Assembly: GCF_005116675.2 (NCBI RefSeq)
Contig: NZ_CP050699.1
Location: forward strand, 806,001 to 870,000
Source: Desulfosediminicola ganghwensis
GTDB taxonomy: Bacteria > Desulfobacterota > Desulfobulbia > Desulfobulbales > Desulfocapsaceae
Direction: 5' to 3'
DNA length: 64,000 bases
Under the pieces are notes generated by a model that saw only the letters and a program-made list of their open reading frames with translations, was not told where the DNA came from and ran no database searches. The position numbers were made by a program, and so were the translations under genes. Below are positions 26,337-43,636 of this stretch, in pieces; position 1 is the stretch's first letter, and each line of letters begins with the position of its first letter.

Positions 26337-26816
26337 ATGAAATATTACGGTATATTCAACGGAACCAGCAGCAGGAATAGAGTGTTGGTCGTATGGTTGC
26401 TACTGATCGTCCTGCTTGTCTCCGGTTGCTCAATGCATGCCGCAGGGGGTGATACTCTTGTGCTTCAGCAGGGTGATGATACCTTCCTTGACCAGAAGCA
26501 TGGCTTGGAGTGGCGTCTGGAGCGGTCCGGCTACTTCAAAACAGCAGAGGATGTGGAGCATTATCTGCAAGGCTTAAACAAGGAGGAGGGCGAGCAGTGG
26601 CGCCTGCCGACAAAACAAGAGCTGTTTGATCTGTTCTCCAGCTTCGATTTGAAGTTAAACGGAGAAGTCAAAATACAGCTTGAGGGAAGATACTGGCTGC
26701 AAGATGATGGCAAAGATTATGTGGGATCCTGGCAAATCGGCGACCAGTGCGGCCCTTCACGCAGTTTTTATCGAGAGAAATCCGGCTATGTCCGGGCCGT
26801 TCGAAACATGCAGTAA
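26337..26816 (+). CDS. Lipoprotein with Lcl/DUF1566-like domain, 159 aa
   Basis: A lipobox (LLVSGCSMH) after a hydrophobic stretch marks a membrane-anchored lipoprotein with lipidated Cys at about 31. The rest fits the Lcl C-terminal/DUF1566 pattern: DQKHGLEWRLE, EQWRLPTKQELFDLF, then RYWLQDDG and SGYVRAVRN. The domain is found in surface and adhesion-type proteins; no enzyme activity is known. Co-transcribed with the DsrE-like gene under the TetR operator. Confidence 0.78.
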   Translation: MKYYGIFNGTSSRNRVLVVWLLLIVLLVSGCSMHAAGGDTLVLQQGDDTFLDQKHGLEWRLERSGYFKTAEDVEHYLQGLNKEEGEQWRLPTKQELFDLFSSFDLKLNGEVKIQLEGRYWLQDDGKDYVGSWQIGDQCGPSRSFYREKSGYVRAVRNMQ

Positions 26817-26829
26817 TAATTCTCAGATA

Positions 26830-26978
26830 CCAGGAGCCTGTCGGACTATGGCGGTTTTCACTCAAATCGAGGCATCGAAGGAAAATAAGCGGAGCCATGA
26901 GGTTGATATTGCGAGCAGTGTTTTTTCCGTCGATAACGATGAGTTGGTTGAAAAGGGTTTAGTCTGACAGGCTCCTGG
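26830..26978. mobile_element. MITE-like element, copy 1
   Basis: A 149-bp unit with 18-bp terminal inverted repeats starting CCAGGAGCCTGTCGGACT, with one mismatch. The inside is non-coding apart from short frames. A second copy at 32023-32196 shares the ends and two internal blocks (ACTCAAATCGAGGCATCGAA and TCGATAACGATGAGTTGG). No transposase is linked in the window. Confidence 0.75.
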
Positions 26979-32022: not shown

Positions 32023-32196
32023 CCAGGAGACTGTCGGACTATTGCGATTTTCACTCAAATCGAGGCATCGAAAGAAAATTAAGCGGAGCCATATAGATAA
32101 TATCGAAGTCTCACTTCGTTCGCTTATCTGCGAGCATTAATTTTTTTTCGATAACGATGAGTTGGCTAAAAAGGGCTTAGTCCGACAGACTCCTGG
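32023..32196. mobile_element. MITE-like element, copy 2
   Basis: 174 bp with ends CCAGGAGACTGTCGGACT and its near-perfect complement. It matches copy 1 (26830-26978), with an extra segment of about 25 bases in the middle (TCGAAGTCTCACTTCGTTCG). It lies 230 bases before the selenocysteine peptide gene, so its border could influence that gene's promoter. Confidence 0.75.
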
Positions 32197-32429
32197 AGCT
32201 ACACCTGGAACGCTACCTCAGCGATTACGGCTGTCTTGCGGTTTATGTGTCTGCTATTCAGGGAAAATTCCTCTTGTTTACAATGTGAATCAAAAATTGA
32301 TATTGGCTGTAGCAGAGCTGTTGCAGTGCACACGTTTGACAGGCCAGTGTTTCTTCTGCTATCGGTATGTTATTAGGTGGCGCATTCTTGGGGGAGAAAC
32401 CTCACCACGGGTAAACGAAGGAGCGAACC

Positions 32430-32759
32430 ATGAAAAAGGACTTGAAAAAGTTGCTAGCAGGTCTTGGGGTGGCGGGTCTGATCGGCGCAGGCGGGGTAAC
32501 CCTGCCGGGACATGTTGCCGGCAGTGGTTGAGGCGGTTCCAGCGGCACAGGTGGTGCCGATGCAGAAAAGCCTGCAGGGACCAGTGGCTGAAGCGGTCAG
32601 ACTGAAGGCGCCGTGAGCGCTGAAGAAAAGACCGAAGAAACGGTTGAAGAGGGTAAGCAGGCAGCAGAAGACATGGAGAAAGAGGGTGAGGAAAAAGTAG
32701 AAGAGGGTAGTGAAGAGGTTCTGCCCAAGAAAACCGGATCGAGTGGTTGAAGCGGCTGA
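32430..32759 (+). CDS. Selenocysteine peptide precursor with three in-frame TGA codons, 109 aa
   Basis: A GAAGGAG site precedes ATG 32430. Reading TGA as selenocysteine (U), the frame runs MKKDLKKLLAGLGVAGLIG, a Gly-rich hydrophobic leader, then GSGUGGSSGTGG (U34), GTSGUSGQTEG (U54), an acidic Glu/Lys-rich middle (about 65-102), and GSSGUSG (U107). It stops at a fourth TGA (32757). Every U lies in an S-G-U-G/S context. Each is followed by a hairpin in the right place for a bacterial SECIS. This pattern matches what I know as selenobiotic-type precursor peptides, modified by a neighbouring radical SAM enzyme. That enzyme follows 142 bases downstream. The leader probably recruits it. The biological role of the product is unknown. 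Confidence 0.85.
32543..32559 (+). promoter_or_regulatory. SECIS-like hairpin after first TGA
   Basis: CGGCAC-AGGTG-GTGCCG: a 6-bp stem with a GGU-containing loop. The loop begins 17 bases past TGA 32529-32531. This matches the spacing of bacterial SECIS elements, which bind SelB and lie inside the coding region just after the UGA. Confidence 0.55.
32607..32621 (+). promoter_or_regulatory. SECIS-like hairpin after second TGA
   Basis: GGCGC-CGTGA-GCGCT forms a 5-bp stem (one G-U pair). Its loop begins 20 bases past TGA 32589-32591. It is weaker than the other two, and its loop lacks the GGU pattern. Confidence 0.4.
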
Positions 32760-32784
32760 TACAACGTACGGTCGTACGGTTATC
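32758..32784 (+). promoter_or_regulatory. SECIS-like hairpin after third TGA
   Basis: The outer stem GATA/TATC and inner stem CGTAC/GTACG enclose a GGTC loop at 32770-32773. GGUC is the apical loop known from the E. coli fdhF SECIS. The loop starts 19 bases past TGA 32748-32750. The best of the three candidates. Confidence 0.6.
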
Positions 32785-32804
32785 GTAAGGGATTGTATAC
32801 GGGG

Positions 32805-32845
32805 AATGCCGATATTTCAGAGAGTGGTATCGGCATTTCTCTTTG
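32805..32845 (+). terminator. Terminator or attenuator between peptide and maturase
   Basis: AATGCCGATA and TATCGGCATT form a 10-bp stem with a 13-base loop, followed by TCTCTTTG. Its place between the precursor and the radical SAM gene would let more peptide than enzyme be made, as is common in RiPP operons. Confidence 0.6.
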
Positions 32846-32901
32846 TCATCTGAGACGTCATTATAAAAGCCTGAATTCAATGTGAAGGACCTCCGGAAAC
32901 T

Positions 32902-34470
32902 GTGAAAACCAACATTGCCGAGCTACCCGTAACAGCGTCGTACCTTCCAAAGGTATTTGCCCGGACGGGAAATTATGACAGGGTTGAGTCCCTGCTTAAG
33001 GCGATCAGGGATATCGAACAGGCTGAGCATATCACCCTGCATCCGTTCATCTTTGATCTGGCCAGGTTGGAGTGGACACTGCACAAGGTGGACCGCGAGC
33101 ATAACCCTGGTCCGGAACACCAGCATTGCCCTGAAGTGAATCCGACCCTTGAAATCTTGTCCTCAGCCTGGAGTGGGTTGCCTGAAATGCTTGCTGGCAA
33201 TCGAACTTCTGTTCAGCCTGGTGAGGGGTATGTTGCAGTGTGCAAACCCTATGGTAAGCAAAGGGCTTCTGCCCTGAAGATAACGGGTCACGATCTGCTG
33301 GCAATCAAGCTTGTTGCTGAAGACCTCGACAAAAGAGCCGTTGCTCAAGAGGGTGGCACATCGATTGCCGTGGTTGAGAGCTTTCTGGCAGAGGCTCGGG
33401 ATAAGGGCTTGATTCATCTGCCGCGGCCTCTGATTAAAAGGGATGGGGAGATCTTTAAGGCTGAGGATGAGGCTCAATCACAAAACGGGCTATACGCTGA
33501 AATATTTACCCTGCAATGGCATGTAACGCAAAAATGCGATTTAAGCTGCCGCCACTGTTATGATCGTAGCGGCAGGGATGAGATGACCATTGGGCAGGCA
33601 GAGAGCGTCCTGGAGCAATTTGAATCGTTTTGTGAGCACAAGAGGGTGGCCGGTCAGATAAGCTTCAGCGGCGGTAACCCGCTGCTCTATTCTCATTTCG
33701 ATCATGTGTATCAAAAAGCGGCTGAAATGGGTTTTATGATAGCAATCCTTGGAAACCCTTCCCCACGCGAGCAGCTCGAAAAGTTGGTGGCGATAAAGCG
33801 GCCGGAATTTATCCAGGTGAGTCTCGAAGGGCTTAAAGAGCATAACGATTACATCAGGGGCAAAGGCCATTTCGAGAAAACGATAGATTTTCTGACCATG
33901 CTTCGTGAGGTCGGCGTGTATTCAATGGTGATGCTGACCCTGACCAGACACAATTTGAAAGAGGTGCTGCCGTTGGCAGAACTTCTTCGAGATAAGACCA
34001 ATCTCTTCAACTTTAACCGTCTCTCCCCTGTGGGGGAGGGGGCGGCACTGGAGACTGTGCCCACCCATGATTACCGCGATTTCCTTGAGGAGTATATGCG
34101 TGCCGCCGGCGAAAACCCGATTATGGGCTTGAAAGATAACCTGTTCAACATCATCCGGGACGAAGACGATCTCGCCCTCACAGGTGGCTGCACAGGTTTT
34201 GGCTGCGGTGCCGCCTTCAATTTCGTCTCCCTGCTACCTGACGGTGAGGTACACGCCTGCAGGAAATTCCCGTCCCTTATCGGCAATATCCATGATTCAA
34301 GCCTTGAAGAAATCTATCATTCAGAGATGGCCGGGAAGTATCGCAATGGCTCATCCGGTTGTAACGGTTGCAGAGTCAGGAGATTTTGCGGAGGCTGTCT
34401 GGCGGTGGTTCAGGGAAGCGGGGGAGATCCCTTCATCGACATAGATCCCTATTGTTTTATCTCTGCCTGA
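32902..34470 (+). CDS. Radical SAM/SPASM peptide maturase, 522 aa
   Basis: The radical SAM cluster motif C212-x3-C216-x2-C219 is in QKCDLSCRHCYDRSG. A SAM-binding Gly-rich strand follows (ISFSGGNPLLY). The C-terminal SPASM region (about 450-515) supplies further Fe-S Cys: HACRKFPS, then GCNGCRVRRFCGGC and PYCF. The 200-residue N-terminal part is helical and probably binds the leader peptide. It starts with GTG at 32902 with a weak site (GAAGGA). The best-known function of such proteins is modifying a small peptide made next door; here that is the selenocysteine peptide. The modification itself (for example linking Sec to a neighbouring carbon) cannot be read from sequence. Confidence 0.88.
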   Translation: MKTNIAELPVTASYLPKVFARTGNYDRVESLLKAIRDIEQAEHITLHPFIFDLARLEWTLHKVDREHNPGPEHQHCPEVNPTLEILSSAWSGLPEMLAGNRTSVQPGEGYVAVCKPYGKQRASALKITGHDLLAIKLVAEDLDKRAVAQEGGTSIAVVESFLAEARDKGLIHLPRPLIKRDGEIFKAEDEAQSQNGLYAEIFTLQWHVTQKCDLSCRHCYDRSGRDEMTIGQAESVLEQFESFCEHKRVAGQISFSGGNPLLYSHFDHVYQKAAEMGFMIAILGNPSPREQLEKLVAIKRPEFIQVSLEGLKEHNDYIRGKGHFEKTIDFLTMLREVGVYSMVMLTLTRHNLKEVLPLAELLRDKTNLFNFNRLSPVGEGAALETVPTHDYRDFLEEYMRAAGENPIMGLKDNLFNIIRDEDDLALTGGCTGFGCGAAFNFVSLLPDGEVHACRKFPSLIGNIHDSSLEEIYHSEMAGKYRNGSSGCNGCRVRRFCGGCLAVVQGSGGDPFIDIDPYCFISA

Positions 34471-41260: not shown

Positions 41261-41749
41261 TTATTCTACAACCCACTCTTGAGCCTGTTTCGCATGACAG
41301 ATGCGGCAGGCTTCAGGAGCTGTCACCACGTGCTGTTCGGCATTGTATTTTTTATGACAACCAATGCATCTCGTGTGGAGCACATTTGCGCGGTGTTCAA
41401 GTAAGTCATCAGCGGTAGAACTATTCATGGCGATTGTGCCACGAATCAATCCCTCACCATCGTGGCAATCAGCGCAGCTATATGATTCATCCGGATCATA
41501 GTTGTCAACAGGTTCGTGGTCGCTGTCATGGTGACAATCGCCACAGCCATCTGCATACTCTTCGATGTGCTTGGCGTGTTGAAACGATACGGACCCGGTG
41601 TAGGTTGAGGGGTGGATATCGTCTGTTCTGCCACCATCAACGGAGCCGTCGAATTCAATGGCCTCCGGGTAATCATCCTGGGCGATTACTGCCCCACACA
41701 GTGTAAAGAAGATAAGAGAAAAGCATATCAATATGGCCTGGGCACGCAT
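41261..41749 (-). CDS. Periplasmic tetraheme cytochrome c (class III-like), 162 aa
   Basis: A signal peptide covers about residues 1-23. Four CXXCH motifs follow: CGDCH, CADCH, CIGCH and CRICH, each with extra His residues (FQHAKH, LEHRANVLH, AEQHVV) able to give bis-His haem ligation, as in cytochrome c3/c7 types. It should carry electrons in the periplasm. It lies between the reductive-dehalogenase-like gene and the porin gene, with 12 and 1 bases between them, so it is the likely electron donor to that reductase. Confidence 0.9.
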   Translation of the reverse strand: MRAQAILICFSLIFFTLCGAVIAQDDYPEAIEFDGSVDGGRTDDIHPSTYTGSVSFQHAKHIEEYADGCGDCHHDSDHEPVDNYDPDESYSCADCHDGEGLIRGTIAMNSSTADDLLEHRANVLHTRCIGCHKKYNAEQHVVTAPEACRICHAKQAQEWVVE

Positions 41750-41761
41750 CCTTTTCCCCTC

Positions 41762-43138
41762 CTAATAGTCTATATGGCGTCTGCCATAGGCGTGTGTTTT
41801 CAGGTTCCAGAATGTCACCGGGTCCGGCTTTTTCCCTTCGAAACCATCTCCTAATGTGGCGAGGGTGTATGGGCAAACATTCATGCAGTTTGAACAGGGA
41901 GCACCCGACTCGGACCACCAGCGAGAGCACTTTTTGCCATCAGCATACCATTTGAGAGCTCCGGGATTGCCACAGGGCATTGCAGCTTGCGGTGGTTTGA
42001 AGGAGCGCTTTTTATCAGGGCAGATTGCACCTGAGGGACATTCGACCGCACAAATACCACAATCTTCACAATATTCTGTGACCCCAAAGCTTATAGGTTT
42101 ATCAGGCTGAAGTGGCAGGTTGGTCAGAACTTTATCAATCCGAACATGGGGTCCCCACTCCGGGGTGATCAGATAGCCCAGGCGACCCAATTCGCCCAAA
42201 CCTGCATCAATGGCGAGCGGGACGCTCATTGCAGTGCTGTTCATGCAGGGAATAGCGACGTAGCCGAGAGAGCGAATTGCCTGGGCGAGAGCCACTGCTG
42301 TCAAACCTCCCTGAGCATATCCCTGGTTAGTACTTGCAACGGATGGAATGGAGGAGGGGGCCAACTGGGTTAGTGCCCGGGGTTGGACGTTAATGATGAC
42401 GATCGCATATTGAACGCTCTCCGGTAGTATAAATTCACTCTTCGTCTCGCTCGGCTGTGGAGTATCTTTGAATACGATATGTTTAATTTCTGGTGGGCCT
42501 GGATCAAGCCCGTTCAGACAGACAGTATCAAATACCCAGCGACGGTCGATTTTGGTTATGCCAACCTTGTCTGCGCCGGCATAGGAAGCGATGATTTTAA
42601 TCTTCTTGGTGAGGTCGTCAATCTCGCTGACCGGCAATGGGGTTGTGGTCAGCTTTTCAGGTAATTTTTTCGGTAGCCATCCTAAATACCCCTTGTTTTC
42701 ACGATTTTCCCCGTATGGGCCGATAATCTCGTTCCAGGTTGTCATGGCGACATTCAGGGCATAGTACATTCGTGCTTCGTGCGGGTTTTGGACCGGCCAA
42801 CCATGACCAACTGTTCCCTCTTTGATATTGCCGATCATATTGGCAGCCATAGCCCAGGCGGAGGAGCCTTTCAGCTCCTCTGAAACAATTTTAAAGGCCA
42901 TGTTTTCACTGCCATATCGTTTCAGGTCAGCTGTGCACTGGTATATTTCGGCGGCTGTTTGATCCCGCTGCTTTACCGTAAATTGTGGAAAGGGAACATT
43001 CCGCTGTGAGATAGAGGCAGCCTGCGCATGGTTCACCTTCCACATTTCTCCAAGAGAGGCTGCAGCAGAGACTGTGGCTATGAATTGGAGAAATCGTCGC
43101 CTTGATAAGTTTCTAATGCTACTTTGGAAAATGCTCAT
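41762..43138 (-). CDS. Tat-exported reductive-dehalogenase-like Fe-S protein, 458 aa
   Basis: A twin-arginine signal is in NLSRRRFLQFIA. The C-terminal part has the two ferredoxin-type motifs of RdhA proteins: CEDCGICAVECP (C-x2-C-x2-C-x3-CP), then an isolated Cys (KKCSRWW) with PCSNCMNVCPY. The central region (GGLTAVALAQAIRSLGY and AIDAGLGELGRLGYLITPEWG) matches the corrinoid-binding core shared by reductive dehalogenases and epoxyqueuosine reductases. Start at the ATG after GGGAGACTGCC. The usual membrane anchor gene rdhB is absent; a tetraheme cytochrome and a porin are encoded instead. Substrate cannot be told; halogenated or other organic acceptors are possible. Confidence 0.82.
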   Translation of the reverse strand: MSIFQSSIRNLSRRRFLQFIATVSAAASLGEMWKVNHAQAASISQRNVPFPQFTVKQRDQTAAEIYQCTADLKRYGSENMAFKIVSEELKGSSAWAMAANMIGNIKEGTVGHGWPVQNPHEARMYYALNVAMTTWNEIIGPYGENRENKGYLGWLPKKLPEKLTTTPLPVSEIDDLTKKIKIIASYAGADKVGITKIDRRWVFDTVCLNGLDPGPPEIKHIVFKDTPQPSETKSEFILPESVQYAIVIINVQPRALTQLAPSSIPSVASTNQGYAQGGLTAVALAQAIRSLGYVAIPCMNSTAMSVPLAIDAGLGELGRLGYLITPEWGPHVRIDKVLTNLPLQPDKPISFGVTEYCEDCGICAVECPSGAICPDKKRSFKPPQAAMPCGNPGALKWYADGKKCSRWWSESGAPCSNCMNVCPYTLATLGDGFEGKKPDPVTFWNLKTHAYGRRHIDY

Positions 43139-43636
43139 GGCAGTCTCCCTGTTGAACATGTTTGGAAGCGGAATCGTTATCTGAGATGGTAGGGACTACA
43201 GTACAAGTTTATCCTAAAAAAAATTCTATTACAGGCATTCCTGGATAAACAGGATAGTCGTGTTACGCGGCAGGGTATTGGTGTTGCCTAACAGGCGTCA
43301 GGTAGCAATCAAATTTTTACGACCTGACTTGACGTCAGACTTTTTTTATATCTGCCACCACAGATAAGACGATCAGTTACTGAAGCTTGTTTGTTATGTG
43401 TATCTGCTTCAGATCGCCTTTTGCTGCTTTTTCTTCCTATCAAATTGAAGTGGTAAGCCGGTGCTCGTGAGAGTCAGGTAAAAATCCGAATCCCTTTGGT
43501 ACGAGGTAAGTGCAAGATTAGCGCCGTTATGACAGCAGTGCTGTGTGGTTGAGTGAGTAAGAAGTCAGCAGAATAGTACAATAATCCCTGTGCGGCATTT
43601 GGATCACTAAGTGACTTTAAATCGCGGGCAAGCCCC
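43139..43636. other. Intergenic region upstream of the reductase operon
   Basis: About 500 bases without a supported gene. It probably holds the promoter of the reductase operon. A near-palindromic CTGACTTGACGTCAG sits at about 43324-43338, without an assigned regulator. Confidence 0.4.

What the first reader, a model, noticed from the sequence alone, without database searches (positions are those of the whole stretch)
32430..34470. Selenocysteine-rich peptide with three in-frame TGA codons beside a radical SAM/SPASM maturase
Seen: one frame with a good ribosome-binding site holds TGA at codons 34, 54 and 107, always as S-G-TGA-(G/S), and ends at codon 110. A standard gene caller misses it because it is cut into short pieces. 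The next gene is a radical SAM protein with a SPASM Cys set and a GTG start. Known: radical SAM/SPASM proteins commonly modify small peptides encoded beside them, and a selenobiotic-type peptide/maturase pair has been predicted by genome comparison (from memory, not checked). Inferred: the selenocysteines are the modification sites and the leader is removed later. The product and its role are not described as far as I know.
Basis: partly seen in the sequence, partly recalled or inferred. Interest (0 to 1): 0.95.

Follow-up and report, generated by a model that had tools for sequence, protein, structure and literature searches.

The report
Multi-selenocysteine peptide with radical-SAM maturase
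This is a real gene pair of a known family (SbtA/SbtM): a small, probably exported peptide carrying three selenocysteines, each inserted by its own RNA hairpin, next to the iron-sulfur enzyme expected to turn them into selenium heterocycles; comparison of about 70 relatives suggests it may be an oxygen-independent, selenium counterpart of copper-binding thiooxazole peptides.

Summary
In detail: 32430-32759 is one frame with in-frame TGA at codons 34, 54 and 107 (S-G-U-G/S) and a TGA stop at codon 110, followed by a radical SAM/SPASM gene at 32902-34470. It is not new as a kind. The precursor passes NCBIfam TIGR04081 (SbtA; called 'selenobacteriocin' in a 2026 review) and the enzyme passes TIGR04082 (SbtM), whose in vitro product, a thio(seleno)oxazole, was reported in 2021. 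The genome has SelB, tRNA-Sec and two Sec-containing SelD genes; SelA falls in a masked stretch and could not be tested. New here: 70 relatives carry 0-6 Sec each; 95% of 151 internal UGAs are followed by a perfect 5-bp stem at a fixed distance (13.5% in codon shuffles) with compensatory changes; the last SECIS lies beyond the stop codon. The leader looks like a signal peptide, with lipoboxes in 13 relatives. SbtM's N-terminal domain has RRE topology and its best fold match is TglHI, a complex of an MNIO enzyme and its RRE partner. Most likely reading: an exported Sec-to-selenooxazole peptide, perhaps a soft-metal ligand like captophorins. The chemistry is inferred from a homologue; the function is a hypothesis.

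The parts
32418..32423 (+). ribosome-binding site AAGGAG of sbtA
   Evidence: sequence
32430..32759 (+). sbtA: selenopeptide precursor, 109 residues, Sec at 34, 54 and 107; TGA stop at codon 110
   Evidence: TIGR04081 39 bits; 70 homologues
32430..32519 (+). leader, residues 1-30: signal-peptide-like (KK n-region, hydrophobic core, end at HVA|GSGU); lipobox at the same place in 13 relatives
   Evidence: TIGR04081 matches residues 1-26
32529..32531 (+). TGA codon 34 read as Sec
32544..32558 (+). bacterial SECIS 1: GGCAC-AGGTG-GTGCC, stem starts at +13 (not the MFE fold of its flank, which pairs otherwise)
32589..32591 (+). TGA codon 54 read as Sec
32607..32621 (+). bacterial SECIS 2: GGCGC-CGTGA-GCGCT, stem starts at +16
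32748..32750 (+). TGA codon 107 read as Sec
32757..32759 (+). TGA codon 110, stop (too close to the hairpin to be served by it)
   Evidence: TAA/TAG at this place in relatives; spacing
32765..32778 (+). bacterial SECIS 3: CGTAC-GGTC-GTACG, beyond the stop codon, in the 3' untranslated part
   Evidence: all 30 terminal modules have such a stem
32801..32841 (+). intergenic hairpin between sbtA and sbtM (-22.8 kcal/mol, z -4.4), possible attenuator or processing site
   Evidence: 47 of 63 relatives have a structured intergenic stretch
32902..34470 (+). sbtM: radical SAM/SPASM maturase, GTG start, 522 aa
   Evidence: TIGR04082 639 bits; PF04055 and PF13186
33151..33402 (+). SbtM residues 84-167: RRE-like domain, three strands then three helices
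   Evidence: AlphaFold models; Foldseek top hit TglHI
33535..33558 (+). radical SAM motif C212-x3-C216-x2-C219
   Evidence: invariant in 62 SbtM sequences
34189..34455 (+). SPASM region with invariant C430, C435, C453, C487, C490, C496, C499, C518

Best explanation
It is an SbtA/SbtM pair. The ribosome reads codons 34, 54 and 107 of sbtA as selenocysteine, each directed by its own SECIS hairpin starting 13-16 nt downstream; the last hairpin lies past the stop. SbtM binds the leader through an N-terminal RRE-like domain and, by radical SAM chemistry, oxidises each S-G-Sec-(G/S) site by four hydrogens to a selenooxazole. The modified peptide is then exported by the general Sec pathway, the leader being removed by signal peptidase I (or II in lineages with a lipobox), and in the envelope its exposed selenols bind soft metal ions, as captophorins (bufferins, oxazolin) do with thiols. 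Shown here by sequence: gene pair, UGA conservation, SECIS covariation, most Sec machinery, RRE topology in a model. Inferred from a homologue in vitro: the heterocycle. Inferred from leader anatomy: export. Hypothesis: metal binding.
For: Family scores over curated cut-offs. SelB 385 bits, tRNA-Sec with anticodon TCA, two SelD genes that each carry an in-frame TGA. In 70 SbtA homologues, 151 internal UGAs: 95.4% have a perfect 5-bp stem at the expected distance against 13.5% in codon shuffles; 30 of 30 terminal UGAs against 25%. Modules picked by loop letters alone have 98.9% paired cells against 15-50% when the partner is slid, with A-U/G-C and C-G/U-A exchanges. Thio(seleno)oxazole made by a homologous SbtM, with the same ~305 nm absorbance as captophorin 5-thiooxazoles. 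Leader: 38 relatives match an AxA-type site and 13 a lipobox just before the first Sec. No protease, transporter or immunity gene is conserved nearby. SbtM residues 66-180 fold as an RRE whose best PDB match is TglHI; weak HvfC/NGO1945_C profile hits in a few homologues.
Against: No experiment on this genome. SelA could not be seen because its expected place is masked. In this window the -3 residue of the cleavage site is His, not Ala, and no signal-peptide predictor was available. The Foldseek match has E = 0.005 and the profile hits are weak; sigma-70 region 4 scores about as well. No metal gene is conserved beside the pair. In 29 of 99 SbtM loci no SbtA was found in the stretch held, some of which are short.
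Confidence: 0.65

Rival explanations
1. Selenobacteriocin: the modified peptide is cut into a small secreted antimicrobial or signal.
For: The family is so named in a 2026 review, and many radical SAM/SPASM RiPPs are antimicrobial (established knowledge).
Against: No conserved immunity, exporter or peptidase gene; about half of the genomes of the class carry SbtM (128 of 258 over cut-off), more like a housekeeping trait; lipobox leaders would anchor the product.
Confidence: 0.2
2. Redox or selenium-storage peptide: the Sec residues serve as an exported selenol/selenium pool and the heterocycle is protective.
For: Up to six Sec per peptide and acidic, repetitive spacers; Sec/Cys exchange in relatives.
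Against: A dedicated radical SAM maturase that consumes the selenol as a heterocycle argues for a specific ligand or function; no redox partner gene conserved.
Confidence: 0.14
3. The TGAs are sequencing or frame artefacts in a pseudogene and the radical SAM gene has another substrate.
For: A standard caller would split the frame.
Against: UGA, flanking residues and hairpins conserved in about 70 relatives in many genera.
Confidence: 0.01

Closest known systems
SbtA/SbtM thio(seleno)oxazole RiPP system (TIGR04081/TIGR04082; Lewis et al. 2021)
   Same: Precursor leader, SGU(G/S) sites, adjacent radical SAM/SPASM maturase over the curated cut-offs.
   Different: Three Sec here (the review lists two for its example; 0-6 in relatives); the last SECIS lies past a UGA stop three codons after the Sec UGA. 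Not known whether these were noted before.
Captophorins: bufferins, oxazolin, fontiphorin (MNIO plus DUF2063/RRE partner; PMC12452194, PMC13097082)
   Same: Multi-site oxidation of G-flanked Cys/Sec to 5-thio(seleno)oxazole; signal-peptide or lipoprotein leader; RRE of possibly related type; no dedicated protease or exporter.
   Different: Catalyst is a radical SAM/SPASM enzyme, not an O2-dependent MNIO; Sec instead of Cys; RRE fused to the catalyst; metal binding untested.
CteB, SuiB, SkfB (radical SAM/SPASM RiPP maturases with solved structures)
   Same: Overall fold: N-terminal RRE-type domain, radical SAM barrel, SPASM (Foldseek E 1e-13 to 1e-15).
   Different: They form thioether or C-C links; the substrate is not a selenopeptide; about 16% identity.

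Membership tests
SbtA (TIGR04081) | leader profile over curated cut-off 30.5 bits | tested here: met
   39 bits, residues 1-26
SbtA (TIGR04081) | in-frame UGA in SGU(G/S) context | tested here: met
   codons 34, 54, 107; SGUG/SGUS commonest in relatives
SbtM (TIGR04082) | profile over curated cut-off 350 bits | tested here: met
   639 bits, residues 9-519
SbtM (TIGR04082) | CxxxCxxC and SPASM cysteines | tested here: met
   C212, C216, C219 and eight further Cys invariant in 62 sequences
SbtA/SbtM system | product is a thio(seleno)oxazole | not testable with these tools
   known for a homologue only
bacterial selenoprotein gene | SECIS hairpin directly downstream of the UGA | tested here: met
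   three hairpins; family-wide covariation
bacterial selenoprotein gene | SelB, tRNA-Sec, SelD in the genome | tested here: met
bacterial selenoprotein gene | SelA in the genome | tested here: inconclusive
   no match, but its syntenic place is a masked 7.5-kb block
captophorin | MNIO (DUF692) enzyme with DUF2063-type partner in the cluster | tested here: not met
   the maturase is radical SAM/SPASM; no MNIO among the ten window proteins scanned
captophorin | Sec-dependent or lipoprotein signal peptide on the precursor | tested here: inconclusive
   anatomy fits, 13 relatives with lipobox; no predictor or experiment
captophorin | copper binding by 5-thiooxazoles | not testable with these tools
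   needs the modified peptide

The most novel reading that the evidence does not exclude
SbtA/SbtM is the anaerobic, selenium branch of the captophorins: an O2-independent radical SAM route to exported, sometimes lipid-anchored, multi-selenooxazole metal-binding peptides, recognised through an RRE related to that of MNIO partner proteins.
Probability: 0.35. Interest if true: 0.75.

Novelty: new member of a known kind. Interest (0 to 1): 0.5.

Why it matters
The pair itself extends a known but little-studied family. The comparison gives three testable points: a family of selenopeptides with up to six Sec per chain in which each UGA carries its own SECIS; a natural UGA-Sec/UGA-stop pair nine bases apart that tests how SECIS distance sets the reading; and a route by which anaerobes could make the heterocycle that aerobes make with O2-dependent MNIO enzymes, pointing to metal protection instead of antibiosis as the function.

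Tried and rejected
Apparent lack of SelA in this genome and two relatives, and the idea of a replacement enzyme beside the second SelD or a SepSecS route: rejected when the syntenic place of SelA proved to be masked with N. Codon 110 as a fourth Sec: rejected (TAA/TAG in relatives, hairpin too close). Lipobox regex hits in L025 and L028: these Cys are the Cys form of the modification motif, not counted. Rfam search of the locus gave nothing. Sequence profile of the N-terminal domain against the PDB gave nothing useful. Genome-contig scan found two relatives only, an Acidobacteria MAG and a Thermodesulfobacteriota MAG. The paper by Lewis et al. is not held; it was read through reviews. The first genome search used a wrong family by mistake.

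Full report
What is there. One frame at 32430-32759 starts with ATG behind AAGGAG and carries TGA at codons 34, 54, 107 and 110. Read with TGA as Sec it scores 39 bits against NCBIfam TIGR04081, SbtA (cut-off 30.5); the next gene, 32902-34470 with a GTG start, scores 639 bits against TIGR04082, SbtM (cut-off 350), with Pfam radical SAM and SPASM domains.

Is UGA read as Sec? The genome (one contig, 5.65 Mb) has SelB, tRNA-Sec with anticodon TCA and two SelD genes that themselves hold an in-frame TGA. SelA gave no match. In relatives SelA lies directly upstream of a conserved TPR gene; in this genome and in the two relatives that also seemed to lack SelA, that gene runs into a masked block of 5-7.5 kb. 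So SelA is untested, not absent.

Relatives. SbtM passes the cut-off in 128 of 258 genomes of the class. In 99 SbtM loci (own window, whole-genome loci and two contigs) a leader profile found 70 SbtA genes. They hold 0 to 6 Sec each (2 with none, 4 with one, 30 with two, 23 with three, 8 with four, 2 with five, 1 with six; the count stops at the first unusual context, so it is a lower bound). SGUG and SGUS are the commonest contexts. Cys stands in place of Sec in several (e.g. L037, L045, L161), and in one group of genera the last module is replaced by a C-terminal EGC. In 29 loci no SbtA was found in the stretch held, some of them short.

SECIS. Of 151 internal UGAs, 95.4% are followed by a perfect 5-bp stem with a 3-6 nt loop starting at +10 to +20, against 13.5% when codons are shuffled; most start at +13 or +16 with loops AGGUA, AGGUG, CGUGA or CGGGA. 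For 30 terminal UGAs it is 30 of 30 against 25%. By minimum free energy, a GU-containing loop hairpin at the right place occurs in 74% against 5%. Picking modules by loop letters alone, without regard to pairing, 98.9% of stem cells pair at offset +16 (76 modules) and 97.5% at +13 (32 modules), against 14-50% when the partner is slid by one or two; pairs exchange A-U with G-C and C-G with U-A. The sequences are related, so the counts are not independent events, but the slid controls keep that relatedness. The residues after each Sec (SAGST, GAVSA) are the coding imprint of the hairpin. In the window the hairpins are GGCAC-AGGTG-GTGCC, GGCGC-CGTGA-GCGCT and CGTAC-GGTC-GTACG. The first is not the MFE fold of its flank. 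The third lies beyond codon 110. Relatives have TAA, TAG or TGA at that place and no conserved protein beyond; codon 110 is the stop, and the hairpin is too close to serve it.

Leader and export. The leader has a lysine-rich start, a hydrophobic core and, in 38 relatives, an AxA-type match shortly before the first Sec; 13 relatives have a lipobox there (VTGC, LPGC, ISAC and others). In the window it ends ...LPGHVA-GSGU, a weaker site. No peptidase, transporter or immunity family is conserved beside the pair; the commonest true neighbour, an ABC ATPase, is in 12 of about 60 loci. Removal by the general signal peptidases would explain this. It is an inference.

Maturase. 62 SbtM proteins share C212, C216, C219 and eight further cysteines. 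An AlphaFold model (pLDDT 91.8) matches CteB, SuiB and SkfB best. Residues 84-167 show three strands then three helices, the RRE topology as described for TglI in PMC9016710. Folded alone, residues 66-180 match TglHI chain A first (E 0.005, probability 1.00, TM 0.56); its length of 268 fits TglI, whose RRE is given as residues 171-269. A few homologues hit NGO1945_C (best E 0.0005) and HvfC (0.0006) weakly, as they do sigma-70 region 4. An RRE is likely; its kinship to MNIO partners is suggestive only.

What is known. Lewis et al. 2021 showed that an SbtM turns Cys or Sec in a substrate peptide into a product four hydrogens lighter, assigned as thiooxazole for Cys (through PMC11002830). A 2026 review lists TIGR04081 as 'selenobacteriocin' with motif SGUG and two Sec, and says few selenoprotein families have 2-3 Sec (PMC13188914). 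Captophorins are 5-thiooxazole peptides made by MNIO enzymes, with signal peptides (some lipoprotein-type), and they bind copper (PMC12452194, PMC13097082, PMC12636315). One of these papers notes that modified SbtM substrate shares their ~305 nm absorbance. I found no paper that joins the two systems; the held library is incomplete.

Verdict. Known family, new member, with an unusually clear case for UGA decoding and a testable new idea on function: an O2-independent selenium counterpart of captophorins. Sec insertion is close to certain; the heterocycle is likely by homology; export is probable; metal binding is a hypothesis.

Noticed in passing
32023-32196: Element with 19-nt inverted arms (32023-32041 / 32178-32196, 95% complementary) upstream of sbtA; ORF translations near 26750-26960 resemble its inside, which suggests a dispersed repeat.
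   Followed up: partly
32801-32841: Strong hairpin between sbtA and sbtM (-22.8 kcal/mol, z -4.4) without a clear T-run; most relatives also have a structured intergenic stretch. Possibly sets the precursor to enzyme ratio.
   Followed up: partly
41762-43159 (-) and 41261-41749 (-): Protein with a twin-arginine-like start and ferredoxin-type cysteines, resembling a reductive dehalogenase by eye, beside a class III cytochrome c gene; Pfam gives only weak Fer4 hits.
   Followed up: no
G000:C1:3466679-3467602 and 4914234-4915163 (L092, L098): Two selD genes, both with an in-frame TGA, while a relative in the same genus (G129) has one.
   Followed up: partly
L113 4502-12001 (within G000:C1:3918000-3933000): Masked block next to the TPR gene where selA is expected; makes selA look absent in searches of this genome and of G128 and G119.
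   Followed up: yes
L136, L137, L139, L141, L142, L147, L149-L151, L153: Relatives whose SbtA ends in EGC instead of a terminal SGUSG module: terminal Sec site lost or replaced by Cys.
   Followed up: no
L033, L035, L038, L039, L050, L116: In one family sbtA lies about 2.5 kb downstream of the sbtM start instead of upstream.
   Followed up: no
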